Positions 18,181-64,000 of a DNA stretch of 64,000 bases are shown piece after piece. The DNA is from a virus. The position numbers and the translations under genes are program-made. The DNA lies in the IMG/VR virus record IMGVR_UViG_3300008117_000049, positions 62,001 through 126,000 of that record; one strand, given 5' to 3'. The notes below the pieces were generated by a model. The model saw nothing but the letters and a program-made list of their open reading frames with translations, made no database searches and was not told where the DNA came from. Each line of letters begins with the position of its first letter. Position 1 is the first letter of the stretch.

Positions 18181-18208
18181 TCCCGCGTTGGAAGACGCGG
18201 GATTTTTT
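18181..18208 (+). terminator. Rho-independent terminator
   Basis: TCCCGCGT...ACGCGGGA followed by TTTTTT. Confidence 0.88.
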
Positions 18209-47800: not shown

Positions 47801-48540
47801 TTATATTTTTTGCCACAGATAGAGGAAATTTTAGTTACCTGCCTAAAGATAGGAGTACCTATAGTTTATCGGGCAATCTTTCGCCGCAAGATGCGTTTAT
47901 GTCACTTGGTCTAGATGGGCCAGATGAAGATGATTCAAGTGGCAGACCGATACCGGGTAGTGGTAGGAAAAGGGCAGTGAGCGTTGCGGCACATGAACTG
48001 ACTCATATGATGATACAAGCATTATTTCCAGAACTTAAGCCAGCGGAGTGGGCTGTTTTGGCTCGTTTTATAACCCAAAGGGATGCTAACGGAAATCTAA
48101 TTCAAAATCTTGTAAACGGAAATCTTGGAGACACGGTTTTGAGCAGTGAAATAACTAATCTTACACCAGCAAGTTTGCTTGCATTATTAAGCAACGAAGA
48201 AGTGTCGGTTTTTGCTCCTGAAATTTCCACTCCTTACTCTACGCAACATCAAAAAGGTTCTAAAAAAGTTGGTGGAGTTCGCGGGCTAAATCCGTTTCTT
48301 CATGGAGAGTTTTTCTCAACTCTAACTCAAGCCATGTTTTCGGGGGACCCGACCATTATGTATCCAGGAAATCTTGTTAGTCCTGGAGATAAACTTAGAG
48401 TAGGTTTTAACGCAGACGGAACACCTAAATACTTTACTATACCAGATGGTCCGATTTTTAATGCTGGTGCCTTGCCAGTGGGTATAGTATTATCTTTATT
48501 AATGAATGAATTAGCAAAACAAAAGCAAGGAATACCATAA
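38803..48540 (+). CDS. Giant multi-ADP-ribosyltransferase protein, 3245 aa
   Basis: One unbroken frame. N-terminal basic R-R-D-R-R-G-R-F-A-W-M-G-G-G motif (about 215-228). Five ART-like domains follow. ART1: R867, SS892-893, E936. ART2: R1299, STS 1333-1335, E1373-K-E1375. ART3: R1643, TTS 1677-1679, E1718-R-E1720. ART4: R1899, S1932, E1979. ART5: R2362 and E2455, degenerate. [V/I]xYAP linkers at 1012, 1429, 1784, 2135 and 2546 separate them. A coiled coil at about 2550-2600 precedes a zincin-like domain with H-E-L-T-H at 3064-3068 and a possible third ligand E3169. ARTs move ADP-ribose from NAD+ onto targets. Position after portal and Dps suggests injection with the DNA. Confidence 0.85.
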   Translation: MSEYENFDPVDEINKIIEGADRPALPSVYVKKDKTNVVIEGTALVASANSKTLPSRRVGRFEMLEVLERSLNRTVTNFNNPSQRAFTAMRELSDFVNMATTGAQPKIAGEHRDLLPVGHPLSTRPNDFSEEELAQARAEWMSADPRIAEEFRPLVATAFVTPEESVEREYLIAKLEATNATQVPRDIILGLTAAGNPYAGGNSFLARSARARAQRRDRRGRFAWMGGGARVWLGKLFDAVSSLFRFAGYDAKTDSFDLEGVPGSPYFGKVISVPASQVEAIKAILPDSLGLPEPRSKSVAKNLIVDPSTLQLKDAPTGWEKVSSENGVDVFRSADGWIATRYPNLASAPKESSITRTRGANSDKSINPDLPVYHIAQGSADGTVVDKPFAVAQGWGDAQALIARYDKKLSPSKKKAELDEPQEQGFIKGWKKQERGYIPADYNPYGYYAGGRDVAMGNDSYTDPSGRFIAVSMAPKKQEQAKNVRKQVLESGKPIETFDGAKDWDGDVSNLWRLERVRSDGKREILGYYQDTEDIERDTEIPKDLEQGQDFYEEIIANTLQWGGNSVDFVDGSNPDQGYLVAHEADVVQPDGSVKKREQLVTPEDFMDPIEGPKILRAYALKNQEKLMEKGFYLGTWTDMVEVKDENGNVIDKKEMVFLDVSEWIKDFDDAFDAGEKRGEIAIFGASEGKSYYIEVEKRRRETIRNTPVLDKEEDKRVREESDRITDEENKWFRDNYAVWQNFERDTGIGFFKDDGSPNPEVAKVSPEIYEHLKRRDDAEKNRNSVFQNYIRSVFEMADGMDPGGKNNGLAVNQGLLDIRDRYVGDDEATLKMNAGLREGQVASSKVKSVDRLVNKSKLKQNTVLYRGAWLDPELVSQIEIQDSYFDRGFQSSGLDVDTATSYLDFRAEKSQGKERVVFRILAPQGMNAIHVGDDEVIMRRNTKMTIIRKTKLDDTTYIDVDIEPQTKEQIDVRLQGLVKGPRPESSESPGELLPDDGGGADGLGEGGPFEVNYAPLPTTRPDSERVTDPQLAIWLRLSKDVLGVSLNGIIDEAIAINQNNDPEKHLAKRLKANVAKSLAEKLKDVDDKEFVRVLDDLGVFSGLSKHMDWSEPKKLQEVIFYSLDARKEVGVNLRAEFANVLRWATTNNDFYREQKELVDKINSTKEVTLEEARLILDAYNENGRLGGFTLFKNLILPDSDNREFLDAVRYTAVSSLVSRWASTSNGSHVSSLAIQEVARRQFGIRGSAEWNNGIGMEIQVKDVADKNRNLIGRFLQAQYDLTQEYFKKKGISKITLYRGVKNFKAHDMPKTTSSTENGISGAVRLRPLSSWSTSEGVAIGFARGEDGRVFRKEFDVKNIFSMPGFGNGCYEEKEMVVLGGVVDSVDIGTYSVLNTRGEGSPVKYPSPEPQAITYESLPNLLPDLGLEVNYAPSRRDSRLLNDAERNEIARHHPTEAIWVSIAEDSTFHKREMPLTLKNSLEFHDREAIRTGQIGTGPMGEGTVELARALKKGVAQNLENKMSSVEASEWAETANLFKDLGIVVNFPNDEESSQYGVVRALISSWAFTSNGDEPLSLAIQELAKKEFGIEKAADWEISPEKQVKVDKILETSENLIRKFLRAQYDLTQEYFKRKGIKKLTLFRGVKKFSNHEIVESTFPNGGKFTATLGLRPLSAWTTSRRIGTIFANRYEQSRLFRKEFDVKDIFCFPGTGFGCLDEREFVVLGGNTKGIDVSSQRDMSPLGGMSDAFNFENRAANYQVVFDSDVESPLDQIAESGFRLGEWVNYAPERLIRPERDAVADITSFDPTDEIPNSPKNAGGMTRNTWWAWERGPDGNQFIDYMRQQACRLIGLPVPETEFDKGKGSHFMLQRGWGAPGEKAIKGMVNAIANGRPQPPLYRGLANGYGENASTPELERLRSVREGDTVDMPLASATRSPGVATWYATNRGTDRGPIILKIREGANGVSLSKTNSFYPHDYETVVNGKFRVVGNQTVLTPVWSRDYVNIFDTEDRPAEGIPILRGQVPEDLLNEIREALIKNPKDDLSRFNTDTLKFTNDRNRSKYSIPISVWMLSEPKEIQVIELEQEKVYSIDENKPESKNDQPETYENVEPFFAEKLEANAEKAPLDSPAEGFIVSYAPLNLTGPQKLVSSDVPEPKITGPQKLVSSDVPEPKKYGKDLKKREQLFKKYEEAENKLDRARKEILDKERAARRANGGAYRPLPYKYDMDENGRLVPNPRLIDELGRKYFNLVQDLADSINALRDFDKKFIESKFELSVGGVIPNPPSRTEITSPGDIWQGLKNVRKESLYAIGDWGASETSRQVLASTRGSYVYNKSMKPEFVSRISPLISQSTLKENTQLHRGEWLPENIVDAAEVGDSIYFDNIQELSLLSDVPNKQLLRRNGDQLDKTYYFNKGKKPVVLRLNCPKGMNALYTKNQADESENFSDIDAGRDREDAMVQAVLLRPDVKMKLVSKTEKDGVTYLEFDVEPKTKEEIESNKSGLIKKDGQVVEQIMPQPEDLGALETPEGFILGNDAPIEPDNRLVVNYAPKNKNKGAGLAKEVERRQKLAEAQKKIQGELKEKQEKEKEILKERMEEQKEELAQKIPEIAQMLPSSPQDLLDPNQPLNILGSTDITQEIFNVPGGDDPEKPNSIQILEPNQVWKDLVSTMEALGSAASDDIENQVNEKFAETIKDLNAQKKQVKASRDEAELGLRTLERAAQQLENSAILNNFGANNSPVRQSIIDTALSYINDKYFLKDPNAPDLVWNSDFGAFAQWAVKKRYPNISKDEALTKTLALLTAANSHLIEIAKMPDSAQRDAEVKKVIAKMMLGTYFTQTWESFFDAAHNLNVTNNPNSAAWEAELSEIIGNNPIPDYNQLARNLFNKLEIYEDNKKNYKKAITDFSKKVHDEIIKPKLEELGIVFGHSVTIEPREINYVGKGSLGHDANRNPVFVPNPSIRATGDLTDARGYASILTEAIQTLPYPIALLVKNFIASNDVIFFATDRGNFSYLPKDRSTYSLSGNLSPQDAFMSLGLDGPDEDDSSGRPIPGSGRKRAVSVAAHELTHMMIQALFPELKPAEWAVLARFITQRDANGNLIQNLVNGNLGDTVLSSEITNLTPASLLALLSNEEVSVFAPEISTPYSTQHQKGSKKVGGVRGLNPFLHGEFFSTLTQAMFSGDPTIMYPGNLVSPGDKLRVGFNADGTPKYFTIPDGPIFNAGALPVGIVLSLLMNELAKQKQGIP
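45229..45324 (+). repeat. Perfect 48-bp tandem duplication inside the giant gene
   Basis: Two adjacent copies encode T-G-P-Q-K-L-V-S-S-D-V-P-E-P-K plus one residue, just after the V-S-Y-A-P linker. Identity is complete except at the boundary, so the event is recent. Confidence 0.85.
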
Positions 48541-48770: not shown

Positions 48771-49064
48771 ATGAAAGTCACTTTTCCAGATGGAAGTTAT
48801 CTAAATTATTATTTTTATTTAGACATAAAGCCAGAGTTTCTAGATAACGACAAGTGTTTGGCTCTCCGCGCTTGGCTTGATTGGCGTATGTTGCTACTAG
48901 ATAAAGGCACAAAAACTTACAGATTTGATAAATTTCTGGCAGACATGGAAGTGAAAAGCGACGACCCGCTATTCTTCAGAATGTTTATAGAAGAGAATTT
49001 TGTAATGGTCAAATTTGAGGGTGATTTAGTTCCAGAAATCCCTGAAAAATATAAGACTTTTTAA
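48771..49064 (+). CDS. Small acidic protein, 97 aa
   Basis: ATG directly after the previous stop. Alpha/beta acidic protein (YLNYYFYLDIKPEFL, DWRMLLLDKG, FVMVKFEGDLVPEIPE). With the preceding gene it fills the gap between the two giant genes. Candidate chaperone or immunity protein; not recognised. Confidence 0.65.
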   Translation: MKVTFPDGSYLNYYFYLDIKPEFLDNDKCLALRAWLDWRMLLLDKGTKTYRFDKFLADMEVKSDDPLFFRMFIEENFVMVKFEGDLVPEIPEKYKTF

Positions 49065-49167: not shown

Positions 49168-52100
49168 ATGACCTACTATAACTCTTTCGGTATAGAGTTT
49201 GAATGTGACGAAACCCAAGAAGGTTTAGTAGCGGCAGGTAATCGCTGGACATCTGGCGGAAACTCCACCCTTGCTCGTCGTGCTCGTGTAGCACTTCAAA
49301 GGCGTGACCGTTATGGTCGTTGGGCCGAAATGGGTGGCGGTATTTCGTTCCCTGGCCGTTTAGGAAACGGAACTATTGAAAAATTTGTTGGTCGTTATGT
49401 CGGTCCCGCTGAACGCCCAGACTATATGCGGGTCTATGTCACAGAGGCCAGAAGACCGGGTATCTACGAAGTCCCTTCCCGAGTTGCTACGGTTGCTAAG
49501 GCACTTCTAAGCAAAGAAGCACTTAAAGATGTTGGCGTAAATCTAGATGTTAACGGAAACCGCGTTGGCGAAATTCTTGACAGAGACATTGAGTTTATTG
49601 ACCAAATGTGGAAAGGCAACAAGCCTACCGATTTTGAACTTAGTATGGCTCGTGGCGAAGTATCAAAGCCAGAAAAAAGAGTTATTGAAAAGGCTCGTCT
49701 AAGAGCACCTAAGCACAAGTCCTACAACATTGTTGATGAAAAAGGCAACAGGATTGATAAAGACGAAGAGCCAGCAAAACCAGATGTAAAAAAGCCTAGC
49801 AAAAAGGCTAAGCCAGCCGAAAAGTTCCCAGTTCCAGACACAAGCCAGTGGGATGAAAAACGCCAAAGCAATGATGTTTGGTATGAAAAAGACGGTAAGC
49901 GTATTCCAGATGAAAGACTAACTGAAGCCGATAAAACTCCAGAAAATAAAAGAATTTATATTCGCGAAGGGGAAAAAGGCGAAAACGACAAAATTATTGA
50001 TGGAAATGGAAACTTAATTGAGTTTAAGCCTAGTCTTAAACCAGAATCTAGTCCAATTCCAGAAAAACTTCCAGAGCATGACCCAGAAGAGGGTTTTTGG
50101 AACAAAGCCAGAGTAAGACGAGAAGAAGTCCGTAAAAATTTAAAGACTCCTCAAGAAATTTACGAAGAATTATATAACGGTGGTTTTGCTGAAGCAGATT
50201 TAGACAAAGCAATAGCAGCCTGTGATTATGCGCTTAGTCAGCAGAAGTACTTAGGTAGAGACGAAAACCCACTATATGCGTCAAATCCAGATGACCCAAG
50301 ACTTAGACACATAGCAAACTTACTTGAGTCCCTACCAGAGTGGCAAGAATACAGAATTAAGCGTGCCATAAATCTTAGATTTATGAACGAGGAAAATATT
50401 GATGAACTAAAGGCTTGGGTAGATGGGAAAATAGAGCCCGGCTCTCCGTTATCACCAGAAGATATGGTTGAACTTCACCGTAAGTTTAGGAATCTTGCGG
50501 TTGACATAACCAACCTAAGAATTTCTGGAGAAGATGCTTTTAGCAACGACAACCTCGGTGCTGAGCGTATCAATATGCCACAACTTGATGAAAAAAACCT
50601 GCCTCTATTTTTACGAGACATGGCAAGAATTGGTGTTGGTCACCGATACACAAGAATGATGCCAGACCAATTACACCCTGTTCAAATGGAAATGGACATG
50701 GGCGATATTGCCAAGATTGCTGAGTCTTGGAAAGACATTGAGTTATTCAATAAATTTAACCCACACGAAAACCCAATTGTTATATCAAGAGATGGTTATG
50801 TTCTTGACGGACATCACCGCTGGGCTGCTGCTTGGCTAGCCCAAAAAAGAGGCGACAAACTTGCCCTTAAGGGTCTAAAAGTAGTTCAACTTGACATAGA
50901 CCACGAACAAGCATTAACGATTGCTAACGAGTGGAACGACTACGCTGGAATTCGCAGGATAACCGTTGGTGGTAAGGATGTTAGAGAGCCTAGACCACAA
51001 GCCCCAGCAGTTCCGCAAGCCACTTCTAAAATTACATCACCGTCTGCTACTCCAGATTTGCCGCGTGTTAGCCCTCAGCCAGATTTAGTAGTAAATTATG
51101 CTCCTTCCGACGACAATTTGTCCACCCCAAGCGGAGAAAACTTTAAGAGTTTTCTTGACAGGGAACTGGCAAATGTCGGCGACAAAATTATTCCAGACTT
51201 TGGTGACCGACTCACAGAAGATACTCCCAACCCAGAGGATAGGAATAGCCCGTTCCCTGGCTCTCGCACAGTTGTAAATAATCTTTTGAAGTATAGAGAC
51301 TCAATGATAAAAGCAATGAAAGAGAGTGCTTTAGACCAAGACCAAGAAAAATTTAGATATCAATTTGAAATTGCTAAAAGAGTCACAAAACTTTTAAATC
51401 AAATACACGAGAATTTTTCTAACAATAAGAATTATGCTGCCGATACTGAATTATCAATTAGTACTAGCAACCCAGAAGAAAAACTAAAAACAGTTAGAGT
51501 TCTTCCAAACACTGTTAGATATGGTACCGACAACAATGGTATTAGAAAAGTTCAGTACTTTGAAGCAATAATTATTGCTAAAAATGGAAAACCTTACATG
51601 GTTAAGTGGACACCAGACCACTCTCACGCCCACAGCATCGACAAAAACGGAATTGTAAACGACAGTAACGATGGTGGAGGTATTTCATTTAACGGTGGAC
51701 AAATGTATGACGAAATTGTTGATGGAAAACCAGTACCTAGAATTGCCAGTGTTGGTGGGGCATTTACTAACGACGGACACCACGCTTTAGGTTTAGCAAG
51801 TGCTCACATAAACCTAATTAGGTGGGTACAAAGCATGTTTGGCGGAAGGCTCAAGCATAGTTCAAACTTAAGTGCTAGAGGAAACCCATACTCAAAGATG
51901 GTTTCTAGAGACATGCGTTGGCACGACAGAAGTCAAGCAGACAAGGCAGTTCATATGAGTTGCCCAAACGCTACTATTTTTAAAGTCCTCAAAGATATGG
52001 GATTAATTAGCGGTGAGTATATTCCAGCAACCCCTGGAGCAAAACAAGATGATGACACTCCGGGCGGTTACGGGGCTCACAGCGGTGGGCGCGGTTGGCT

Positions 52101-55100
52101 AAGAAGGCTCACATTTACCAACAACTCTGGTTACTCAAGTAATGTATCTGTCTTAACAAGTTATAGCATTAACGATGAGGTCAGGGCTTATGACGGAGAG
52201 TTCTTAAGAAAAACTCCAGAAGAACAACAAGCGATACTTGACGCTATGCCTCCAATTTTTAGAGATTTCTTTGCTGGAGATAGGTCTAGAGATAGCATAG
52301 GCCGAACCGCTGATTTTGATGTTCAATATAAAATATTGGAAACTGCTTATGCTGACGGAATGAAGCAACAGGAAGCAGTAGATTTCCTAGACAGTTTAAT
52401 TACTGGGCTACCAGAATTAGATAGAGCATTTGGCAGAAATGCTGACCACAGAGAGTTGCTTAGACGCTTAAAGCAACTAAGAGATGGAATTAGTATTGGA
52501 TTTTGGAACCAAAGCGACAACAATTACAATAGGCCAAAATCTTTTGACCCAAACAGTATTAGAGCAATTGAATCTCCATTTGCTGGCTACTTTAAATTTA
52601 ATGATTGGGTTTTGCCAAGAGATGTAAATAGAGTTCTAAACGATTTACCATTTAGTGCTAGACCACACAGAGGAGGCTGGTCAAAACCAGATGGTTGGAC
52701 AGAAGAGCCACAAGCACTAAAAGACCTTTACGGTCCAGAAATTTTGCTTGCTTCCTTGCGCGACGCTCTTTTGAACAAAAAAGGTAAATCTGCCAAACTT
52801 CCAGACATTAATGGGGAAGAAAATACCGTTGACCCAACAGCAGTCTATAAAGCACTAGAGAATAACGGATATGACACAGAACTAATTCTTGCTGGCATTT
52901 ACGATGAACTAAACGGCAATTCGGTAAATACTGAAAAGTTGTTAGCAAAAAGACAAGAACTTGGAAATCTGCAAGGCATCATAGAAGAAATAACTAATGA
53001 AATAGCAGATGTAAAGGCTCCAATAGAATTTTCTAGAATTGGCGGAGAGTATGACTCAGAAAGTAAAGTTCTTCAGTCTGACCTAGTTAGGCGTGGAGAA
53101 ACTGGAGAAATTCCTACAGCACTCCAATTAAGACCACTTTCTTTGGATAACGAAGCATATGATTATCTAGGTCCAACTGGTGCAAGAACTCAAGTAATTC
53201 TTTCTCAACATCACACTCCAGAAATATCAATGTCTCGTTATTACATTGATGGAGTATCAGACAACCCAAAGGTTATTGCTAGAAACTTTAACCCAACTGG
53301 CCTAAGAAATGCTCTTATTGACTCAGTTACAAAGAATAATTACGCTGTAAAACTTAGGTACCCTAACGGACAGACCATAGATGTTCCAAACAATGCTATT
53401 CGAGATGCTTTACAGTACCAAGGGTATGACATAAATACCGTTTTAAGAGAAGAACCTAGTCTAAAACCTAAATTAAAAAGAATTAGTAGCGTTTCTGACA
53501 GGGAGAACGCAGACGGTAATGGCACCAGAATTAGCGAGTGGGCCATCTATAATTCAAGTGGCGAAGAAATTAGACTAAACGGTCCTGGCATTAGACAAAA
53601 GAGGAACGACACCACAGGGGAACACGAGTGGGATGTAGTTGATTTATCTAGTCCGCAAGATAACAGAACAATAGTTGCCAAATTAGCAAAAGTCAAGAAA
53701 AATGACGAAGGCAACTACGAAGTTTGGGTGGCAAATAGAGCCGACAACAAAACAGATGAATTTTCTGGAGAACCTAGCGGTGTTTATGAAACCTTACAAG
53801 AGGCTTTGTATGATGTTAAGAACCACATCTCAGACGATGCAAATATAGATGCATCTACCAACCTGCTAGGCCAAGGAAGAGCGCCTACAGTTAGTAACGG
53901 TTTTGCTATTGTTGGTGGAGCAAATGATGAGGCAGAAGTTACCGTTGGTGATTTAACATTACAAAGACCAGACGGTGCTGAAAGTTTTGTTGTTTTCTCT
54001 AACGGTGCTGGAACTGGCAGATTTAGAAGAATTTCTACTGCTCGTATTGAAAACAACACAATTGGCACGGTTTATACCGCAGAAACTTATTCCGTAGGAG
54101 AAGATGGCGGGAAAATTGAAGCCTTTGATTTGGTCAGAAAATCTTTCATAGGCTCTGACCCAGTTAGAAAACAAAGAATTTATGAGATTGCAAAAACTAA
54201 TCGTGGATTTGAACTTACAACTCACAAATATCATCCAGATGAGGGTGGCGTAACTAGGACCGAAACACTTGTATTTGATAATTACGAAGATGCTAAAGAC
54301 TATGCCAATAAAAAATTATTGGCTGGTCATATAGGATTACCTGGAGAGAAAGTATTTCCTAATCTTTCTGTCAGACAAGAAAGAGTTCCTGCTAGTGCGG
54401 ATTTGTCAAATCAAAACATATTCCAAGACAACTCTTCTATTCAAATAAATACTCCAGTAAAAATGACTGACGGAGTTAAAGGTCTTTTAAAAATCAATGT
54501 TAAGAAAGGTGCTCACCCTACTTGGAGAAACGGCGAGGACAATCAACAGTATGTGTTTGCTGAATTTAGTTTTGGCAATGAGCCAGACGAACCTCTTATC
54601 ACTGGTAAAATTACTAGAACTGGAGTAAGACAGTGGGTAACTGTTTCCTCAACAAATTCACCAAGTTTTAAAGAACACGCAATAAGTTCAATATTAAGAA
54701 ATGGTACTTTCTTTGCTAACAGTAAAGAAGAGGCTTTTGAAAGCCTAAAATACAGACTTGAAGAATCATTTGGCATAACTAATCAGCAAAGAGCCGACGG
54801 TCAGTCTGTACTACCTAGAATCAGACTTGTAAATAGGGCTGTTAAACTTGAGCCACCACCGCCACCGCCAGCCCCAGAAGATAAAAGCCTTTTTGCAGAT
54901 GGCGTTTTTGACGACTTCCTAAGAGTTAGAAATACCCCGCTTGATATTACTGGTGCAGAAGATAAAGGCGGTATGGGTCTAGGACAATCTGGTTCTAGAA
55001 AATATGAATTACCAGATGGTAGAAAGTTTAAAGTAAAAGATGAGGGCGCTAGAAAAGCAGCGTCTGAATCACTGAACCATGCTCTACATTTAGCACTTGG

Positions 55101-58100
55101 AATTCCAGCAACTGAAGCAAGAACTGGAAAAGCACCTGGCACCACACATGCAGTAAATGTTATTGACCCGTTTGAGCCAGATATAGTTTCTGGTCGCAGA
55201 AATGGGCACATGCCTGGTCAAGACTTGTTTAAGGATAGCGAATTTGATAAGCCAGAAAATCAGCAAGCAATTGCAGATATACAAGAAGGTTTAATTATTG
55301 ACTACTGGCTTGGCAATCAAGATTTTGTGCTAAACACTGGAAACTCTTTTGTTGCGGTTAGAGATGGAGTTAGAAGAGGTGTTCGTTGTGATGTTGGTGG
55401 CGGAATGTTCACCGCTATTCGTCAACAATTAATAAATAATTTTGCAGACGGAAATGATGCCGTAGAGGAATTTATTCACTACTGCGGCGATTTTATGAAC
55501 TCTGGAAGAGTAAACAAATCTTCTGAAAGTGGCCACATGAGGCGCGGTCTTACTAAAGAAAAAATGCTTGACATTGCTAGAAGAACCTTGCTTCGTTACA
55601 CTGACGACAAGATAGACAGAATTGTTGATGCCCACATAACTGACCCAAACGATAATGCTTTGGCAAAACAAGGTTTAAAGGCAAGGCGTTTAGCAATGCT
55701 AAATTACTTGGGAATAGACCATAACGAAACACCGCCTACTAGACAAGCACCAGCGGTTCAGGCTCCAAGAGTCCAACCCCCTACTGCAAATGTTCCTGGT
55801 GGGACACCAAATGAATTGCCAAATGGGGCAAATGGAGCAGTTCCTGTTGTCGGCATAAATCCTGCTGGAAAACCAATTGTCGGCCTACCGGGTGAACTAC
55901 AATCAAATGGTCTTTGGGTTATGCCACTTGAAGCAATTACACCTGATATTGCAAATGCAATCGCAAGGGGAGAGGTAGTTCCAGAAAACTTACCACTTCA
56001 CGCAGTAGATTCAACCAATCCAGAAAATTCAATAGTTATTGACGGCTCTGGCGTGCTTAGACCAGCATCTGCTCTAAACCACGGATACACAACAGTAATT
56101 GCTAGAAGAAAAGATGCTAACGGAAACTATCAATATCTACTTGTAAAGCCAGATGGCGACAACACTCCTTTTGGTCGTGCAAATCGAGACAGGTTTGGCG
56201 GAGCATATAAAGAACATGAAAGGTTTGATGTACGCCCATCCGCTCAAGAAATACTTAATGAGCGTTTTGGTGTAGAAGCGGAAAATAAAGTTGTTGCTAC
56301 ACAAGAAATTCTTAGGTCTGTTCCTGGACTTGATGGAGTACACAGAGTAATAATTGCTGATATTGCTGATTTTGATATGTCAATATCACAACCTCACCCT
56401 ACTCAGGGATACGCTTTATCTAGAAGATGGGCAATTTGGAGCCAAAATCCTTACGGTGACCAAGGAGATGACAACTTTATTCCACTTGACGCTACAGAAA
56501 GAGAGCGTCTTGTTTCAAAGGCTCGCCGTTGGGAAAACACCAATCCAGCACCTGCTGGAAACCAACCACCTTCAGGCGGGGACTCAAACGGTGGAGACGA
56601 TGGAAGCGGTCCATCTAACCCAAGTAACGGTGGCGGCGGAACAACTCCACCTATGTCTGGCTCAGACGATGACTGGCAACCATTCTCCAGATTCACTGCT
56701 ATTTCCGCTCTTCCTGGAATGCCAGAAATGGAATTCGAATTTAATATTTATCGTCGCAGAGATGGAGCAGTTAAGGTAGTCAGCGAATTTGACAACCTAC
56801 TAGGACATGTAAAACCGTTGGAGCACGGCTATTGGGTAGCAACATTGATGCCAGACAAAATTGGCACCAACAACAATGTTGGTGCTGAAAAAGCATTCTT
56901 TAGAAATAAATCTGATGCTGAAAACTGGCTAAGTCGAAGAATTTATAACCAAGTTGGCGTTAGAGAAGACGCTAGAAGACGCTTCACCGACCACCCAACA
57001 GATACTACATTCTTCCCAGATGTTCAACCTCCATTTGTTGTTGAAAGAGGATATCTAAATCCAACTACAGATGCTCAATCTCGTTTGGCTAAGAGACTGG
57101 TCAAAAACAAGCAAGCAACTGCTGAAGAAAGAGCAATGTACAAGGCTATTCTTTCTCAGAGAAACCCTACTGTCGGTGATGTTGGTTGGATAATTGGTCA
57201 ACTTAAAGATAGAGAAGATAGAGATATTGCAGAAATACAAGCATCTGACCAAGCAGAATTAGATGCTTTCAATGCTGGCAACCCTATCCAAGAATCTTCA
57301 CTTGAGAACGCTGGAGACGGTGCTAACAGAAGACACGCGGTTCGTGCTGGAGACCTTGAAGTTGGACATAGAATTCTTGGAAACATCAATGCCGATGTTG
57401 TCTTTACAGTTCCTGGCGAAAACGATACCGTAAATATTGGTGTGGTTGGAGACGATGGTCAACTTAAGATTTACAAAGTTGGCAGAAACAGAGTGTTGGA
57501 CTGCATTTATGGAAGACAGGCTCAACAAGCACCTGCTCAGCAACCAGCAGCACAAGGTCTTGCTGTAAGGCGGAGAAGAAACGAACTTATTCAAGACGAA
57601 ATAAGGCGCGCTTACCCCAACGCTTATACTTTGCCTAACGGCGATATAATTATCGGTAAAAGAGACCACCGTATGGCAGATGGAAGAGTATTCCGCTATG
57701 AAGCAGTGGTCCATAAACTAAAGTCTGACGAATTTGTTGGCTATGTAAGAAGACAAGAATTAGGTGCAGACAGAGCGCCAACTGGACCAAGTGAGGCTGC
57801 CTACTTAACCACCCCAGCACACTCAGCAACAGCACTTAAGAACAGGCTTAGAAAACGAGTTGTACCTGCTCTAACAGCAGCAAATCCAGCAAACGGATTC
57901 AATCAAGTTGGAGATGTTCAACCAGAAGTAACTGACCCATCAACTGGTCTATTGCTACCAGAAACTCTTGTAAATCTACAAAAGAGATTTATTGGTACTA
58001 CTGGAATTGAAAAAACTGGACACCCAGCAAAAGACGCTCTTATCGAGTATGTTCAAACCCTTGTTGCTAGAGGAATTTCTGCTCCAGAAATTATCAACCA

Positions 58101-61100
58101 AGTAACTGGACCAAACCAGCGTCTATTCAGTAGAGCGCAAATGGATGACATTATTGACCGTCTTGAGGCTAACCGTCTATATCCAGGCGTGAATGTTATT
58201 CCTTATGTTTCTAAAGACAACAAAACTATTGTTCGTGTTGGCGACAGGGTTGTTCATTACAATGCCGATGGAACTCCAAAACTTATGGCTAACGGTCAAC
58301 CAAGAACTGGTACCGTAGTTAGGCGTGTTCCATACACTCTAAATGTTAAACCAAGTGGGCAGTATGAGTACACTGACCAAACATTTGTTCAATGGGATGA
58401 TACCAGCAGACCACATCAGGCTGCCCCACGCCGTCTAGAAGTTACTAGAAGAGCCGACGGAACTGACCCAATTCCAGCGGTTCAAGACAGCGGTTCTACT
58501 CCACCGTCTCCGTCAATTGACGCTCTTCCAGTGCAACCTAAGAGAGTTGTTCCTAGGCCAGTTGCCCCAAGCCGCCGTATTCCTCCAATTCGTGAACCAG
58601 AACAAATCACCGAAAGCCTTATCGTTCAAAAAATGGGGCAGTTCACTGGCCAACTGCCTGATAACTACACTCTAGACCGCAGTGATGCAATTGATAGTGC
58701 AAATCTTGGTGGTCGTTCACCTATAGTTCTTACTGAATTAACTAGTGACGGAGAATTTATAGTAGGTCGCGTATATCAAGACGGTTCTTCAATCGTACAA
58801 GAAATACGAGAAAACGGTCAAGCAGTGTCTAGAAGAGTTGCTAGAGACCTAGACGATGCTTTAGAAGGACTTGTACTTCACGCTATAACCCAGCCATTTA
58901 GAAGAGATGACAACGAATCTTCAGATTCTAGTGGTGGCTCTTCACCCGACGATGCTGGCGGCGGTGTCCCAACTCCACCTAACAATCCACCTGCTGGTGA
59001 CGGTGAAGAAGCAGAGTCTTCTGCCCCTGGGCTAGACCTATCTCGTGGTAGAAACGGTCAATCACCGCAAGGAGTTCTTCGTTTTATCAACGGAACTATT
59101 CCTAAAGTCAACACATTTTGGGATGACGATTATCCACCTACTCGGTATCAAGTTGTTAGGGATGAAAACCGCACTAGATTCCTTGGAATTGGTGGCGACA
59201 ACCCCGGTGCTGAAGCGTTTATAAAAGTTGAAAGAACTCCAGAAGGAAACTGGAAAGTAGTTGACCCTAGAAGGCGTAGGGATAACAACGGAAACTATAT
59301 AGACCCAGACCCATACCCTGCTCAGTATGGTGACCGTAATCTAGCCGAAGCAATTGCTATCAACGACATGACTGGCAACAATGAAAATAACAGAGAACTT
59401 CTTGAAGCACCAGAAACTCCTGCTCAAAATGCTCCTGCGGTTCCGTCTAACCAAGTTCCGTCTGACCAAGAACTTATGGATACTGACCCCGCTATAAGAA
59501 ACTTTGTAAATAGAGGTAGAGTCAATAACTCTAGAAGACTGCTCACCAATGGTACAGAAGTTACAGCCTATGATGCTGATAATGAGATAGCCTCTATTCA
59601 AGCACCTGGGCCAGACGGACAATATATAGTCACCGACTTTAGAAACGGCAATGTATCTGGTTTCTCTAATAGGTTTGAGGCAATAGTTCAGTTTGGAAAC
59701 ATACTGCAAAGTTATGATGACCAGCAAGGGTTTAACCAAGTAAATCTTGATTCTACGCCACAACGAGTCCCTGAAATAGACTTACCTTGGAATGACAAGA
59801 GAAACGAAGTTCAGCCTCTAGAAATTAGTGCAATTCGTAGTTTTGAAGTTATTATGGACCCTAACGGTGATGGCAACCTCGCCCCAGTAAAAGTACAAAT
59901 AAATAGAAATCCTGATAGTACTACATTCTTTGTTGGAGACCCAATCTCACAAGACTCAGATTTGAATGTTATAAAATACACTGCTGGCTGGGGAGTAGAC
60001 GGAATAACATCAAATTCTGGTGAAGTAAAAATCTTTGCTAGCAGAGACGAAGCCGAAGCAGCAGCATTAAATGCATTCCGTGACTTCTATAGTGATATTA
60101 GGGAACGATATGTGGCACAGGGAGGTAATAGAAATAACGCTCCAGCAGTTCCAGCAGTTCCAGCAACTCCTACTGGACCATCAAACGGTGGAAACGGTGA
60201 CACCCCACCTACCAACAACCCACCAGTTCCACCTGCTCAGACACCAGTTCCACCTGCTCAGGAGCCAGCAGACGCAGTGGAGCCAGAAATTCCGCAAGGT
60301 AGACCTAGAGTAAATACAGTAAAACCTGGCGATAGGTATATCAAAACTCGTTCAAGAAGAGACCCTAATGGCGGTCCTCAAACTTTGTTTGATATTTATG
60401 ACAGAAAAACTAGAAAAATTATTGCTAATGCCAGAACTTGGCAAGAAGCAAATGACATTGTAAATGGTATTCGTGACCTAAAAGGAAAGTTGATAGATTA
60501 CCAAACCCCTATTCAACCTAGAGACAGACTTGCGCCAAGCGCTACTAAACCTCAAGGCTATAAGAGAGTTGCTAACGGCAATGGTTATTATCTAGAAAAT
60601 CCTAATGACCCAGATGGACCAGTTGTAAGAGTTGATTGGAATGAAGATTCAGAAGACTGGGTTGGCGCACTTTATGCAAATAAAGCAGATGCTACTGCTA
60701 CAATAAATCCAATGGAAGAGTTCTTTGACTCATCTCAAGACAGTATTTACAACAAGGCAAATCTATCTATTCAAAAAGAACTAGATAGAAGAAACCCCCC
60801 AGCACCGCAACCGCAAGCACAAACGCAACCGCAAGCAAATACTGGAACTAAAACAAACCTTGGAAATGACATATTCTCAGTTCATAATGAAAACGAAGAA
60901 TATGGAATTGCTATCAAGGGTGCTGATGGCAAGTGGGCTGTTAGAGTTCACGAAAACGGTATAGATGCTATGAATAACACTAACCCAATTTCCACTGGCT
61001 CTTATGACACTCCAGAAGAAGCGGAAGCCGCTATTCGCCAAGCAATCGCTGAGCGTAAAGCACAGAGAAACGCCTCCAACATTCTTCAGTGGCAGTCCGC

Positions 61101-61494
61101 TTCAGACGGAAAGGCTTACTTAGGTCTTGAAGGAGTTCCAGGTAGAGACGCTGACAATTCTCCAATTATTGGTATTAGCCCATCACCTTTTGGAAATAGT
61201 TGGATTAGTGCTGGTTGGAATAGAAAAGCAGATAGAGATGCTGGGCTACCGCCAGCCGTAGTTAATCAACACGAAAACGAAGAAGCCGCAAAAGATTACG
61301 GACAAGAAATGATGCGGAGACTTGGTGAATTATTAGGTGTAAGACAAGTTGACCCAACAATTCAAGAAAATCCAAGTGCTGGTGGAGAGCAACTGCCGCC
61401 TGGAGTAACTTTACAGGACCAAGTTGATGCTGGATTAACTACCCCGTTAAATCCAGACGCTCCGCTACCCGGAACAAACACGCCTAACCAATAA
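49168..61494 (+). CDS. Giant multidomain protein, 4108 aa
   Basis: One open frame with AGGAG. N-terminal L-A-R-R-A-R-V-A-L-Q-R-R-D-R-Y-G-R-W-A-E-M-G-G-G, as in giant 1. ParB/sulfiredoxin-like block I-V-I-S-R-D-G-Y-V-L-D-G-H-H-R-W-A at 538-553. One V-V-N-Y-A-P linker at 641. A His-rich unknown domain (D-H-S-H-A-H-S; N-D-G-H-H-A) at about 810-890. Kinase-like fold at about 1920-2190: G-G-M-G-L-G-Q-S-G start, catalytic N-Q-D-F-V-L-N (D2052), metal D-V-G-G (D2075). Nudix-like domain at about 2290-2440. The rest, to about 4040, is mostly W-x-V...EA modules joined by Pro-rich linkers. Likely virion-borne. Confidence 0.8.
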   Translation: MTYYNSFGIEFECDETQEGLVAAGNRWTSGGNSTLARRARVALQRRDRYGRWAEMGGGISFPGRLGNGTIEKFVGRYVGPAERPDYMRVYVTEARRPGIYEVPSRVATVAKALLSKEALKDVGVNLDVNGNRVGEILDRDIEFIDQMWKGNKPTDFELSMARGEVSKPEKRVIEKARLRAPKHKSYNIVDEKGNRIDKDEEPAKPDVKKPSKKAKPAEKFPVPDTSQWDEKRQSNDVWYEKDGKRIPDERLTEADKTPENKRIYIREGEKGENDKIIDGNGNLIEFKPSLKPESSPIPEKLPEHDPEEGFWNKARVRREEVRKNLKTPQEIYEELYNGGFAEADLDKAIAACDYALSQQKYLGRDENPLYASNPDDPRLRHIANLLESLPEWQEYRIKRAINLRFMNEENIDELKAWVDGKIEPGSPLSPEDMVELHRKFRNLAVDITNLRISGEDAFSNDNLGAERINMPQLDEKNLPLFLRDMARIGVGHRYTRMMPDQLHPVQMEMDMGDIAKIAESWKDIELFNKFNPHENPIVISRDGYVLDGHHRWAAAWLAQKRGDKLALKGLKVVQLDIDHEQALTIANEWNDYAGIRRITVGGKDVREPRPQAPAVPQATSKITSPSATPDLPRVSPQPDLVVNYAPSDDNLSTPSGENFKSFLDRELANVGDKIIPDFGDRLTEDTPNPEDRNSPFPGSRTVVNNLLKYRDSMIKAMKESALDQDQEKFRYQFEIAKRVTKLLNQIHENFSNNKNYAADTELSISTSNPEEKLKTVRVLPNTVRYGTDNNGIRKVQYFEAIIIAKNGKPYMVKWTPDHSHAHSIDKNGIVNDSNDGGGISFNGGQMYDEIVDGKPVPRIASVGGAFTNDGHHALGLASAHINLIRWVQSMFGGRLKHSSNLSARGNPYSKMVSRDMRWHDRSQADKAVHMSCPNATIFKVLKDMGLISGEYIPATPGAKQDDDTPGGYGAHSGGRGWLRRLTFTNNSGYSSNVSVLTSYSINDEVRAYDGEFLRKTPEEQQAILDAMPPIFRDFFAGDRSRDSIGRTADFDVQYKILETAYADGMKQQEAVDFLDSLITGLPELDRAFGRNADHRELLRRLKQLRDGISIGFWNQSDNNYNRPKSFDPNSIRAIESPFAGYFKFNDWVLPRDVNRVLNDLPFSARPHRGGWSKPDGWTEEPQALKDLYGPEILLASLRDALLNKKGKSAKLPDINGEENTVDPTAVYKALENNGYDTELILAGIYDELNGNSVNTEKLLAKRQELGNLQGIIEEITNEIADVKAPIEFSRIGGEYDSESKVLQSDLVRRGETGEIPTALQLRPLSLDNEAYDYLGPTGARTQVILSQHHTPEISMSRYYIDGVSDNPKVIARNFNPTGLRNALIDSVTKNNYAVKLRYPNGQTIDVPNNAIRDALQYQGYDINTVLREEPSLKPKLKRISSVSDRENADGNGTRISEWAIYNSSGEEIRLNGPGIRQKRNDTTGEHEWDVVDLSSPQDNRTIVAKLAKVKKNDEGNYEVWVANRADNKTDEFSGEPSGVYETLQEALYDVKNHISDDANIDASTNLLGQGRAPTVSNGFAIVGGANDEAEVTVGDLTLQRPDGAESFVVFSNGAGTGRFRRISTARIENNTIGTVYTAETYSVGEDGGKIEAFDLVRKSFIGSDPVRKQRIYEIAKTNRGFELTTHKYHPDEGGVTRTETLVFDNYEDAKDYANKKLLAGHIGLPGEKVFPNLSVRQERVPASADLSNQNIFQDNSSIQINTPVKMTDGVKGLLKINVKKGAHPTWRNGEDNQQYVFAEFSFGNEPDEPLITGKITRTGVRQWVTVSSTNSPSFKEHAISSILRNGTFFANSKEEAFESLKYRLEESFGITNQQRADGQSVLPRIRLVNRAVKLEPPPPPPAPEDKSLFADGVFDDFLRVRNTPLDITGAEDKGGMGLGQSGSRKYELPDGRKFKVKDEGARKAASESLNHALHLALGIPATEARTGKAPGTTHAVNVIDPFEPDIVSGRRNGHMPGQDLFKDSEFDKPENQQAIADIQEGLIIDYWLGNQDFVLNTGNSFVAVRDGVRRGVRCDVGGGMFTAIRQQLINNFADGNDAVEEFIHYCGDFMNSGRVNKSSESGHMRRGLTKEKMLDIARRTLLRYTDDKIDRIVDAHITDPNDNALAKQGLKARRLAMLNYLGIDHNETPPTRQAPAVQAPRVQPPTANVPGGTPNELPNGANGAVPVVGINPAGKPIVGLPGELQSNGLWVMPLEAITPDIANAIARGEVVPENLPLHAVDSTNPENSIVIDGSGVLRPASALNHGYTTVIARRKDANGNYQYLLVKPDGDNTPFGRANRDRFGGAYKEHERFDVRPSAQEILNERFGVEAENKVVATQEILRSVPGLDGVHRVIIADIADFDMSISQPHPTQGYALSRRWAIWSQNPYGDQGDDNFIPLDATERERLVSKARRWENTNPAPAGNQPPSGGDSNGGDDGSGPSNPSNGGGGTTPPMSGSDDDWQPFSRFTAISALPGMPEMEFEFNIYRRRDGAVKVVSEFDNLLGHVKPLEHGYWVATLMPDKIGTNNNVGAEKAFFRNKSDAENWLSRRIYNQVGVREDARRRFTDHPTDTTFFPDVQPPFVVERGYLNPTTDAQSRLAKRLVKNKQATAEERAMYKAILSQRNPTVGDVGWIIGQLKDREDRDIAEIQASDQAELDAFNAGNPIQESSLENAGDGANRRHAVRAGDLEVGHRILGNINADVVFTVPGENDTVNIGVVGDDGQLKIYKVGRNRVLDCIYGRQAQQAPAQQPAAQGLAVRRRRNELIQDEIRRAYPNAYTLPNGDIIIGKRDHRMADGRVFRYEAVVHKLKSDEFVGYVRRQELGADRAPTGPSEAAYLTTPAHSATALKNRLRKRVVPALTAANPANGFNQVGDVQPEVTDPSTGLLLPETLVNLQKRFIGTTGIEKTGHPAKDALIEYVQTLVARGISAPEIINQVTGPNQRLFSRAQMDDIIDRLEANRLYPGVNVIPYVSKDNKTIVRVGDRVVHYNADGTPKLMANGQPRTGTVVRRVPYTLNVKPSGQYEYTDQTFVQWDDTSRPHQAAPRRLEVTRRADGTDPIPAVQDSGSTPPSPSIDALPVQPKRVVPRPVAPSRRIPPIREPEQITESLIVQKMGQFTGQLPDNYTLDRSDAIDSANLGGRSPIVLTELTSDGEFIVGRVYQDGSSIVQEIRENGQAVSRRVARDLDDALEGLVLHAITQPFRRDDNESSDSSGGSSPDDAGGGVPTPPNNPPAGDGEEAESSAPGLDLSRGRNGQSPQGVLRFINGTIPKVNTFWDDDYPPTRYQVVRDENRTRFLGIGGDNPGAEAFIKVERTPEGNWKVVDPRRRRDNNGNYIDPDPYPAQYGDRNLAEAIAINDMTGNNENNRELLEAPETPAQNAPAVPSNQVPSDQELMDTDPAIRNFVNRGRVNNSRRLLTNGTEVTAYDADNEIASIQAPGPDGQYIVTDFRNGNVSGFSNRFEAIVQFGNILQSYDDQQGFNQVNLDSTPQRVPEIDLPWNDKRNEVQPLEISAIRSFEVIMDPNGDGNLAPVKVQINRNPDSTTFFVGDPISQDSDLNVIKYTAGWGVDGITSNSGEVKIFASRDEAEAAALNAFRDFYSDIRERYVAQGGNRNNAPAVPAVPATPTGPSNGGNGDTPPTNNPPVPPAQTPVPPAQEPADAVEPEIPQGRPRVNTVKPGDRYIKTRSRRDPNGGPQTLFDIYDRKTRKIIANARTWQEANDIVNGIRDLKGKLIDYQTPIQPRDRLAPSATKPQGYKRVANGNGYYLENPNDPDGPVVRVDWNEDSEDWVGALYANKADATATINPMEEFFDSSQDSIYNKANLSIQKELDRRNPPAPQPQAQTQPQANTGTKTNLGNDIFSVHNENEEYGIAIKGADGKWAVRVHENGIDAMNNTNPISTGSYDTPEEAEAAIRQAIAERKAQRNASNILQWQSASDGKAYLGLEGVPGRDADNSPIIGISPSPFGNSWISAGWNRKADRDAGLPPAVVNQHENEEAAKDYGQEMMRRLGELLGVRQVDPTIQENPSAGGEQLPPGVTLQDQVDAGLTTPLNPDAPLPGTNTPNQ

Positions 61495-61536: not shown

Positions 61537-62223
61537 ATGCCACAAAACCCTGAGTTCACTCTCAACTCAGACACACTTGGAGTTGTCTATAAAGACACTG
61601 GTGTGCTTGAGGCGTATGACTCTGTTGAAGCCGAAACCCCTAGCGAAACTCACGCTATTATTGGGGCTTATTATGAGCCATCTGGTCAATACAAAGGTTT
61701 GTATTTTGTTCTACCAGAGGGCGAAATAAAGTATTTTGACATAGATGTAGTAAAACTAGGCAGTCAAAACGACGGTGCTTACATAACTTTTGAGGGTGAT
61801 GGAAAGTTTTGGCTAATTAGAGGTTTAGAGCAAGAAGACGGTCTCTGGCTTTCTAAATACAAGATGGAACTTCCTACCGAAGTTTTACAGCAACTTATAG
61901 TTGGTAGGTCAAAGCCAGCACTTACCAAATATCTTGGCGTAAATATTCCAGACACTTTACCTGAATTTGAAACTTTGCTTGTTTATTTTTCTGAGGCATC
62001 TAAAAACATTTTTGCTTTGAACTATATGTCTTCTATAGGTAATTACACTCGCCTTGACTACGATTGGGAGAGTAGTGAAGTATCTTATGACTACTATGAA
62101 GACCTAGCAGTTGCTGAAATAGACCCAGAAAAAGCCAATGAATTGTTGAAAAAATTTGACGATGCAGATGGTCTATTTCCAGTTCGAGAAATTCTAAAAA
62201 CTTATGAAGTTGGTGGTAAGTAA
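61537..62223 (+). CDS. Hypothetical acidic protein after giant gene 2, 228 aa
   Basis: ATG with TTGGAGAT. Acidic beta-rich protein (GVVYKDTGVLEAYDS, G-L-Y-F-V-L-P-E-G-E-I-K-Y-F-D, A-Y-I-T-F-E-G-D-G-K-F-W-L-I). Its position after giant gene 2 resembles that of the 76/97-aa pair after giant gene 1. It could be a dedicated chaperone or immunity protein. Coupled to the next gene by TAATG. Confidence 0.68.
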   Translation: MPQNPEFTLNSDTLGVVYKDTGVLEAYDSVEAETPSETHAIIGAYYEPSGQYKGLYFVLPEGEIKYFDIDVVKLGSQNDGAYITFEGDGKFWLIRGLEQEDGLWLSKYKMELPTEVLQQLIVGRSKPALTKYLGVNIPDTLPEFETLLVYFSEASKNIFALNYMSSIGNYTRLDYDWESSEVSYDYYEDLAVAEIDPEKANELLKKFDDADGLFPVREILKTYEVGGK

Positions 62224-64000
62224 TGTTATCTAAATGTTTAGGTATAGATAAAAACAGTATTGCCTACTATGGAAACTCTGAAAGATATGTTGCTATCAAC
62301 ACCGTTTTTAATGCCGTAGTTGAGCACGGAACTGTTACAAAAGAAGTTCAGCAAAAAATAGACTCTCTAAACCCGCCAGTTGCTTTGCCAATTGAAACGA
62401 TAGAACTTGCTATATCTGCCTTATCCGCTACAAAAGAAGATACCGAAACTTTGTTAGCGTCTGCTCGTTTATACACCATACCAGCAGGTGTAAAAGCAGA
62501 GGCTAAAAAAGCACTTGAGTGGCGTAAAGAAGAAAAGCGTGGCGGAACTCCTGTAGGTCTAAACACTGCTCGCACTCTTGCCCGTGGTGGACAGATTGGC
62601 ATTGAAAAAGTTCGTCATATCGCCAAGTATTTCCCTCGCCACGAAGTAGATAAAAAAGGTAAAGGCTGGGAGCCCGGAGAAGATAACTTTCCTAGCAACG
62701 GAAGAATAGCCTGGGCGCTTTGGGGCGGAGACGCTGCTTGGCGTTGGGCCCGTGCAATTGTTGAGCGTGAAAACAAAAAGGCTCTAAAAGCAGACGCTGG
62801 TTATTCAGAAATTATTTCGGCTGATTTATCTCCAATTGAAGACGCTTTTAGGATGGATGACAGTATTGCTCCAGACTTTTTGGCTCGTGTTCGTCTTGAC
62901 GGCTCTGGCATTGACCGCATTTACAAAATTGATTTAGACGGAAAAGTTTATGCGTGGGATGACGGAACTTGGGATGATTTAGGCCACGCAGAAAATGGCG
63001 ACATTTGGACTTATGACAAGGCTTTAGATGACCCCTACGACACCGTGGAAAAAACACATGTTCAGATTGACCCTGAGTCAGCAATTATTATTTGTGCTCG
63101 TTTAAATACTGACCCGTTCAGAAATATTTCTATTGATGAAATAGATGAAGAAGAGGCTAGCCTAGCGGCGGAGGCTGCTTCCGAAGAGGACTGGGACTTT
63201 ATTGACAAAGTTATTACCGCTGCTGGAGAGGGAGGTGGTGTCGTTGATAAAGACGGAAACTACACTCCACAAGAGCGTTCTCAAAATGCTTCTAAGCAAC
63301 TAAGAGACGGTGGCGGAAGATTTGCTACTCAAGGTAAAAATGTTTCAGTAAAAGGTCAGGGTAATGGAATTATTACCAATGTTGACCAAGGTTCTGGAAA
63401 TGTTACCGTAAAGATGGAAAACGGTCAGTCCGTAGTAGTCCCAGCAAAAGACACTAAGCAGGTAGAAGAAGAAGACATTGCTTCTCCAGTCGGTCCTTAT
63501 AGTGGCTCAGAAATACAAAAACCGCTAGATGTTTCTGGAATTTTAGGCGAGCCTAGAACTCCACAAAATATGCCAAAAGCAAGACTAAAAGACACTTATC
63601 CACCTTTAGGTAGAGATGACCTACACAAACTTCTTGGTGATTTCCCTGCTTGGGTTAGAGAGCAAAGAGCACAGTTCAAAGGAACTCCTCAACACCCAGA
63701 TTCAAATTTTGCTTTAGATGATGAATTTGACAATGCTTCAGAAGATTTAGAATCTGAAGAAAAATCAGAAACAAAAATGGGTAGGCCAAGAAAGCCAAAA
63801 GTAAACCCAAAGGTACATCACCCGCTTCTTCGTCAGTGGGAAAAAAGCATAAGCCCAGAGACTCCAAATCCGTCTGATAGCAACCCAGAGGATGCTTGGG
63901 CAAAGCCAGTAACGGCTGCTGGAAAAGCAAAAGGCTCTGATGTCCAGCCAGTTTATTTGGCTATTGTTTCTCCAGACGACCCTCGTGCTGTTATGGATTG
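62223..64000 (+). CDS. Large head-region protein with RDGGGRFA motif, partial
   Basis: The ATG overlaps the previous TAA; the frame is open to the window end (at least 592 codons). Residues about 80-190 contain I-P-A-G-V-K-A-E-A-K-K-A-L-E-W-R, L-A-R-G-G-Q-I-G-I and I-A-W-A-L-W-G-G-D-A-A-W-R-W-A. This block is frequent in phage head-associated proteins, often fused to proteases or toxins. Near residue 360 is L-R-D-G-G-G-R-F-A, followed by a small beta domain (G-N-G-I-I-T-N-V-D-Q-G-S-G-N-V), matching the shared motif of the giants. The remainder is charged and low complexity. A third member of the giant set is likely. Confidence 0.75.
   Translation, partial: MLSKCLGIDKNSIAYYGNSERYVAINTVFNAVVEHGTVTKEVQQKIDSLNPPVALPIETIELAISALSATKEDTETLLASARLYTIPAGVKAEAKKALEWRKEEKRGGTPVGLNTARTLARGGQIGIEKVRHIAKYFPRHEVDKKGKGWEPGEDNFPSNGRIAWALWGGDAAWRWARAIVERENKKALKADAGYSEIISADLSPIEDAFRMDDSIAPDFLARVRLDGSGIDRIYKIDLDGKVYAWDDGTWDDLGHAENGDIWTYDKALDDPYDTVEKTHVQIDPESAIIICARLNTDPFRNISIDEIDEEEASLAAEAASEEDWDFIDKVITAAGEGGGVVDKDGNYTPQERSQNASKQLRDGGGRFATQGKNVSVKGQGNGIITNVDQGSGNVTVKMENGQSVVVPAKDTKQVEEEDIASPVGPYSGSEIQKPLDVSGILGEPRTPQNMPKARLKDTYPPLGRDDLHKLLGDFPAWVREQRAQFKGTPQHPDSNFALDDEFDNASEDLESEEKSETKMGRPRKPKVNPKVHHPLLRQWEKSISPETPNPSDSNPEDAWAKPVTAAGKAKGSDVQPVYLAIVSPDDPRAVMD

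What the first reader, a model, noticed from the sequence alone, without database searches (positions are those of the whole stretch)
49168..61494. 4108-aa companion protein combining ParB-like, kinase-like and Nudix-like domains with a module array
The recognised blocks (DGHHRWA; NQDFVLN with DVGG; G-x5-E...E-x2-x-G Nudix-type box with altered REUxEE) are all found in toxin/effector contexts. Nudix enzymes can also hydrolyse ADP-ribose, which would link functionally to the ART protein upstream. If virion-borne, this gene and giant 1 together represent about 22 kb of DNA devoted to cargo.
Basis: partly seen in the sequence, partly recalled or inferred. Interest (0 to 1): 0.82.

Follow-up and report, generated by a model that had tools for sequence, protein, structure and literature searches.

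The report
Phage giant multi-domain cargo protein
This is a 4,108-residue protein of a freshwater phage that probably infects actinobacteria; it strings a DNA-nuclease-like, a kinase and a burnt-out Nudix domain together behind an N-terminal tag that the phage's head-maturation protease also carries, so it is most likely loaded into the virus head and delivered into the host with the DNA.

Summary
The 4,108-aa ORF is real: an RBS precedes it, it is under purifying selection, two further assemblies hold it, and orthologues of 3.9-4.4k aa exist. All three folds hold up: a ParB/sulfiredoxin-type domain (DGHHRW intact), a HipA/CtkA-type kinase (catalytic residues intact), and a Nudix fold. The Nudix box has lost two of three metal-binding glutamates, and every orthologue's box is eroded, so it should not hydrolyse ADP-ribose or NAD+. 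Only one repeat pair supports the "module array". The gene lies between portal and head-maturation protease; the tape measure is elsewhere. In relatives this slot holds 1.9-7.7k aa of swappable cargo (ARTs, kinase, Nudix, UvrD, RNase T, ArdC-N, zincin). Nearly all cargo giants there begin with the same ~90-aa RDxxGRF + SH3-like domain, which is also inside the protease and, in this genome, in nothing else. The kinase is fused to MuF or minor capsid proteins in bacterial genomes; a 3,787-aa relative of the ParB part is annotated as virion-verified by mass spectrometry. Verdict: a new variant of the polyvalent (virion-borne, multi-effector) proteins, with a shared tag that is a candidate head-loading signal. 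Delivery and activities are inferred.

The parts
49168..61494 (+). Giant 2 gene, 4108 aa, calculated 454.5 kDa
   Evidence: orthologues; dN/dS
49255..49509 (+). N-terminal RDxxGRF + SH3-like tag domain (aa 30-114)
   Evidence: profile in the giants of relatives and in the head-maturation protease; AF2 beta-strands at aa 59-103, pLDDT about 84
50497..50976 (+). ParB/sulfiredoxin-like domain (aa 444-603), DGHHRW intact
   Evidence: phrog_2859 E 3.4e-22; 80 viral loci; BFVD ParB/Srx matches, TM up to 0.74, rmsd 2.2
51085..52647 (+). Conserved uncharacterised ~500-aa region (aa 640-1160)
   Evidence: 8 related giants; no Pfam match, only chance PDB matches
52687..52908 (+). Repeated small module, copy 1 (aa 1174-1247)
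53248..53448 (+). Repeated small module, copy 2 (aa 1361-1427)
54970..55719 (+). HipA/CtkA-like kinase domain (aa 1935-2184): K1957, E1967, D2052, N2059, D2075 intact
   Evidence: invariant or near-invariant in an alignment of 49; residues read; Foldseek CtkA 1.8e-6, HipT 1.2e-4
55978..56370 (+). Degenerate Nudix-fold domain (aa 2271-2401)
   Evidence: Foldseek RenU 7.1e-4, prob 1.00; family profile to RenU 5.4e-8; eroded box
56665..61491 (+). C-terminal region (aa 2500-4108) of segments joined by Pro/Gly/Ser linkers
   Evidence: linkers; only orthologues match
38803..48540 (+). Companion giant 1 (3245 aa): same tag, about five ART-like domains, C-terminal HELTH metallopeptidase-like region (HELTH at 47992)
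   Evidence: Pfam DRAT 6.2e-12
36494..38320 (+). Portal protein
   Evidence: phrog_776 E 8.8e-105
38330..38803 (+). Dps/ferritin-like protein
   Evidence: Pfam Ferritin 1.6e-15, phrog_3636
62223..64000 (+). Start of the 1757-aa head-maturation protease (continues to genome 129496); carries the same tag at about 63255-63488
   Evidence: phrog_18402 head maturation protease 6.4e-56; tag

Best explanation
Giant 2 is a virion-borne polyvalent protein: many effector domains on one chain, encoded among the head genes. Most likely steps: its N-terminal RDxxGRF/SH3-like tag, shared with giant 1 and with the head-maturation protease, places it in the procapsid; it is packaged and perhaps cut at its linkers (by the head protease or giant 1's HExxH peptidase); it then enters the host with the DNA. 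There the HipA/CtkA-like kinase probably phosphorylates a host protein, the ParB/Srx-type domain acts as a nuclease or NTPase, and the dead Nudix domain at most binds an NAD/ADP-ribose-like ligand. Shown: domain folds and residues, gene position, tag sharing, cargo turnover, purifying selection. Inferred: loading by the tag, processing, injection, substrates.
For: The position between portal and head-maturation protease is kept in the relatives. Cargo giants begin with the tag (one of the mapped large cargo proteins excepted in each of three phages that have several), it lies inside the protease, and it occurs in only three proteins of this genome. A cargo-only profile finds 22 of 27 protease-type proteins and the reverse 75 of 102, against 0 of 540 and 0 of 2,040 shuffled decoys; profile-profile comparison 97.1%, E 6.8e-11. 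The cargo of relatives is typical of polyvalent proteins: ArdcN 4e-50, MPTase-PolyVal 9e-45, ADPrib_exo_Tox 1e-31, NUDIX 2e-23, UvrD, RNase_T. The kinase family is fused to Phage_Mu_F (1e-13, 6e-18), Phage_min_cap2 (1e-60) and ARTs in bacterial genomes. H66 gp60 (3,787 aa, matches the ParB part, E 2e-8) is annotated 'verified by mass spectrometry as part of the virion'. Microbacterium phage Burro's >4,400-aa protein is reported as virion-associated (PMC7302621). Kinase fold: CtkA/HipT.
Against: No proteomics for this phage or for any tagged giant; H66 shares only the ParB-like part and its host is a pseudomonad. The tag may serve assembly or DNA binding rather than loading. No cleavage site is known and giant 2 has no HExxH of its own. 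No kinase substrate or activity is known. The ParB match in Pfam is below the curated cut-off, and the ParB-containing model found nothing in the PDB.
Confidence: 0.75

Rival explanations
1. Giant 2 is a head-internal structural or assembly protein (inner core, ejection scaffold) whose enzyme folds are remnants.
For: It sits in the head module, carries the protease's tag, and its Nudix domain is dead.
Against: Kinase catalytic residues are invariant or nearly so across 49 sequences from different contexts and the kinase is among the slowest-evolving parts (dN/dS 0.184/1.419). Cargo length and content vary widely between related phages, 1.9k to 7.7k aa, unlike a structural part.
Confidence: 0.14
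2. Trojan-horse cargo: the ART-bearing companion and giant 2 act on protists that graze infected bacteria, as proposed for freshwater phage ARTs (PMC6802176).
For: Proposed in the literature for ARTs of freshwater phages, some predicted to infect Actinobacteria. CtkA, the closest solved kinase, is called proinflammatory in its PDB title.
Against: No secretion or cell-entry module was found; the next distinct fold match is the bacterial HipT toxin; polyvalent partners such as ArdC-N in relatives point to the bacterial host.
Confidence: 0.05
3. Tail tape measure or other tail component.
For: Very long phage protein with a repetitive look.
Against: The tape-measure candidate is a separate 1,106-aa gene in the tail cluster (genome 3420-6740) with homologues of varying length in the relatives; in Pumpernickel the annotated tape measure is also a separate gene.
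Confidence: 0.02

Closest known systems
Polyvalent proteins of phages (Iyer et al. 2017, PMC5512222)
   Same: Several disparate domains in one chain, encoded beside portal and head genes; ParB-like and kinase domains; relatives carry ART, ArdC-N and PolyVal zincin domains.
   Different: HipA/CtkA-like kinase, where that paper describes a truncated kinase family; relatives up to 7.7k aa; a tag domain shared with the head protease, not described in the parts read; the zincin-like region is on the companion, not on giant 2.
MuF / minor-capsid effector fusions
   Same: The same kinase family is fused to MuF and minor capsid protein 2 in bacterial genomes; same gene neighbourhood.
   Different: Giant 2 has no MuF domain; a different N-terminal domain takes that place.
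Pseudomonas phage H66 gp60 / F116-type giant (phrog_2859)
   Same: Homologous ParB-like part in a 3,787-aa protein annotated as virion-verified.
   Different: About 30% identity over 160 aa; its note mentions a methyltransferase-like domain; proteobacterial host.
Cluster EK/Burro >4,400-aa proteins (PMC7302621)
   Same: Giant, fast-diverging, late-gene actinophage protein reported as virion-associated.
   Different: No shared domain shown; functions unknown; podoviral.
Microbacterium phage Pumpernickel gp82 and the other tagged giants of its group
   Same: Same tag shortly after the portal; a head-protease homologue with the tag follows.
   Different: 2,235 aa, other cargo; annotated hypothetical.
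CtkA / HipT (HipA-like kinases)
   Same: Fold of the kinase domain.
   Different: 11-14% identity; embedded in a giant phage protein; no antitoxin partner was looked for.

Membership tests
Polyvalent protein | Two or more domains with unrelated activities in one polypeptide | tested here: met
   ParB/Srx, HipA-like kinase, Nudix fold
Polyvalent protein | Encoded in a portal-terminase phage next to virion genes | tested here: met
Polyvalent protein | Domain vocabulary shared with known polyvalent proteins (own, or same locus in relatives) | tested here: met
   ArdcN, MPTase-PolyVal, ART in relatives' cargo
Polyvalent protein | Zincin-like processing peptidase (common, not obligatory) | tested here: inconclusive
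   Not in giant 2; HELTH on giant 1 but no Pfam zincin match there
Polyvalent protein | Packaged in the virion and injected | not testable with these tools
   Only a distant homologue is annotated as virion-verified
ParB/sulfiredoxin superfamily | Fold and conserved active-site arginine (GHHR) | tested here: met
DdrB-like ParB | Extra helix with conserved tyrosine | not tested
   named in PMC5512222, not examined
HipA/CtkA-like kinase | Fold plus K, E, D...N, D catalytic set | tested here: met
HipA/CtkA-like kinase | Kinase activity | not testable with these tools
   needs an assay
Nudix hydrolase | Nudix fold | tested here: met
Nudix hydrolase | Intact Nudix box (REUxEExGU metal glutamates) | tested here: not met
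   E-I-L-N-E-R-F-G here; eroded in the giant-2 orthologues, intact in other giants
MuF protein | Phage_Mu_F domain | tested here: not met
   no match in giant 2
Tape measure protein | Long gene of the tail cluster | tested here: not met
   giant 2 lies in the head cluster; a separate gene fits

The most novel reading that the evidence does not exclude
The ~90-aa RDxxGRF + SH3-like domain is an address label for the phage head: the maturation protease and the cargo giants carry it, and phages exchange effector modules behind it, as polymorphic toxins do behind their delivery domains. The related short motif repeated between modules of other phages' ParB polyproteins would be the same label or a processing site.
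Probability: 0.4. Interest if true: 0.78.

Novelty: new variant of a known kind. Interest (0 to 1): 0.62.

Why it matters
About 22 kb of this 135-kb phage is devoted to two giant cargo proteins. The comparison turns a single odd gene into a system: a fixed slot in the head module, a common tag shared with the head protease, and swappable effectors. If the tag loads cargo, it gives a sequence handle to find virion-injected effectors now annotated as hypothetical, and a way to test how phages place proteins in their heads. The HipA/CtkA-like kinase becomes a candidate injected phage kinase, and the dead Nudix domain warns against assigning ADP-ribose hydrolysis from motif shape.

Tried and rejected
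Tape measure: rejected by gene order. Nudix hydrolase on ADP-ribose/NAD+: rejected for this protein by box erosion. Module array: nine seed modules tested, only one repeats. GNAT label for aa 860-1160: my working name from a motif, no support in Pfam, PDB or the structure search, dropped. PI3/4-kinase: Pfam matched three cargo pieces of relatives, but none of the 17 kinase domains aligned did so on its own. Recurrent [LV]xAAG as a protease site: seven strict matches in head proteins against three elsewhere, too weak to claim. Sequence search of the kinase profile in the PDB gave only chance matches. Alignments with misplaced fragments (A8, A10) were discarded. The broad kinase alignment (A3) had no stretch conserved enough for collection scans; a tighter one (A7) was used.

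Full report
Observation. The ORF 49168-61494 (+) is a single 4,108-aa frame with a GGAG ribosome-binding site. The window is positions 62001-126000 of a 135,336-base virus record. Two other assemblies hold the same ORF at about 99.97% identity, so it is not an assembly artefact. Against the nearest orthologue (4,227 aa, 62% identity over 3,832 codons) dN is 0.32 and dS 1.20, with dN below dS in every segment; tag and kinase are slowest, the Nudix segment and the C-terminus fastest.

Context. Portal (phrog_776, 9e-105), a Dps/ferritin-like protein (Pfam Ferritin 1.6e-15), giant 1 with about five ART-like domains and a HELTH motif, giant 2, a 228-aa protein, and a 1,757-aa protein whose aa 982-1427 match head-maturation protease families (phrog_18402 6e-56), then the likely major capsid protein and tail genes. 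The tape-measure candidate is elsewhere, at genome 3420-6740. Portal-based relatives were fetched and their head modules mapped: the order is kept. Where both ends of the interval are present, the cargo (ORFs of 600 aa or more) totals 1.9k to 7.7k aa, in one to three genes. Open frames of 7,669, 6,548 and 6,544 aa occur.

Cargo. Pfam scans of relatives' giants give ArdC-N (4e-50), MPTase-PolyVal (9e-45), ADPrib_exo_Tox (1e-31), NUDIX (2e-23), UvrD helicase (4e-19), RNase_T (9e-14), GNAT, WYL and others. Several of these are on the list of domains described for polyvalent proteins (PMC5512222). The domain matrix shows that relatives differ in which of ART, kinase, ParB and Nudix they carry and in how many copies.

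Domains of giant 2. (a) ParB/sulfiredoxin-like, aa 444-603: phrog_2859 3e-22, a large viral family with DGHHRW conserved, and AlphaFold/Foldseek matches to viral ParB/Srx models with TM up to 0.74 at 2.2 A. Pfam's own match is below its cut-off and the PDB search of that model was empty. (b) Kinase, aa 1935-2184: no Pfam family recognises it, but the model (kinase part mostly above pLDDT 85) matches H. pylori CtkA (1.8e-6) and HipT (1.2e-4) in the PDB. K1957, E1967, D2052 and D2075 are invariant in the alignment of 49 and N2059 nearly so. In bacterial genomes the family is fused to Phage_Mu_F, Phage_min_cap2, WGR and ART domains, in part therefore to proteins of the phage head. (c) Nudix fold, aa 2271-2401: RenU is matched by structure (7e-4, prob 1.00) and by family profile (5e-8). 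Other giants keep a canonical box (GGAHDSFDDSQNPEITAKRELQEEVG), while giant 2 has GGAYKEHERFDVRPSAQEILNERFG and its orthologues are eroded too. A non-hydrolytic role, for instance ligand sensing as reported for NrtR-type Nudix domains (PMC9503650), is possible but untested. (d) Array: one real repeat pair only.

The tag. Residues 30-114 form an Arg-rich helix with RDxxGRF followed by a small beta barrel (predicted strands at aa 59-103, pLDDT about 84; 'SH3-like' is my reading of the strand pattern, no fold match to a solved structure was obtained). A profile of it finds the giants of the relatives and a site inside the head-maturation protease; in this genome it finds only giant 1, giant 2 and the protease. 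Of the large cargo ORFs mapped, a few second or third genes of an interval (G016, G040, G042) lack it. Because iterative searches can drift, the link was tested in both directions with separate profiles: the cargo-only profile hits 22 of 27 protease-type proteins, the protease-only profile hits 75 of 102 cargo proteins, none of 540 and 2,040 shuffled decoys is hit, and hhalign gives 97.1% with E 6.8e-11. The split was by a sequence pattern, and at least one cargo sequence (L120) fell on the protease side. Cultured phages share tag and position: Microbacterium phages of the Pumpernickel group, and, weakly, Arthrobacter phages such as Atuin, directly before the capsid maturation protease; so does DSL-LC01, a metagenome-assembled lake phage predicted to infect Actinomycetia (PMC10611076). 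In other phages' ParB polyproteins the short form (such as QPRDDHGRFASGS) stands several times per protein between modules; Q-x-RDxxG[RKQ][FWY] occurs 104 times in a thinned set of ORFs against 0.1 expected after shuffling, homologous copies included. I did not find this motif described in the papers read; that is not proof of novelty.

Mechanism. Best reading: a polyvalent protein loaded into the head through its tag, released with the DNA, its parts acting on the host. Support for virion location comes from position, the tag, MuF-type fusions of its kinase family, the annotation of H66 gp60 as virion-verified and the virion-associated giant of phage Burro (PMC7302621). Loading, processing, injection and all activities are inference. 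Host assignment rests on relatives, not on direct evidence.

Membership. It meets the testable criteria of a polyvalent protein; it is not a Nudix hydrolase by the box test, not a MuF protein, not a tape measure. Verdict: a new variant of a known kind, with an uncharacterised tag domain as the most interesting lead.

Noticed in passing
window 38330-38803: A Dps/ferritin-like gene sits directly after the portal in this phage and most relatives; in several relatives it is fused to further domains, including parts of a Cys-rich protein (called high-potential iron-sulfur protein in DSL-LC01) that in this genome lies at genome 58684-59922 on the minus strand.
   Followed up: partly
window 38803-48540 (aa 1012, 1429, 1784, 2135, 2546 of giant 1) and giant 2 aa 642: The linker motif [VI][NS]YAP occurs five times in giant 1 and once in giant 2, near domain borders, and nowhere else in the genome; none of the relatives' mapped proteins holds it twice. 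Possibly a duplicated linker or cleavage site.
   Followed up: partly
window about 45274-45370: A 16-aa (48-bp) tandem repeat ITGPQKLVSSDVPEPK is present twice in the window but once in two other assemblies of the same phage (L007, L008): copy-number variation inside giant 1.
   Followed up: partly
window 48771-49064: Small conserved ORF (97 aa) between the two giants, with homologues at the same place in two relatives; no PHROG match.
   Followed up: partly
L002:15862-17040 and 16989-18326: Two adjacent major-tail-like ORFs start with nearly the same sequence; the C-terminal part of the first looks like an out-of-frame reading, so it may be a frameshifted duplicate.
   Followed up: no
L099/L100 (7,669 aa), L101/L102 (6,548 aa), L103/L104 (6,544 aa): Relatives carry single cargo genes of 19.6 to 23 kb with up to six ART-like domains, among the largest phage proteins I know of.
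   Followed up: partly
L144:5041-8664, L172:8744-12520: ParB-type or adenylyltransferase-bearing polyproteins of other phages repeat Q[PA]RDxxGR[FW]xSGG-like motifs three to five times, apparently one copy ahead of each module.
   Followed up: partly
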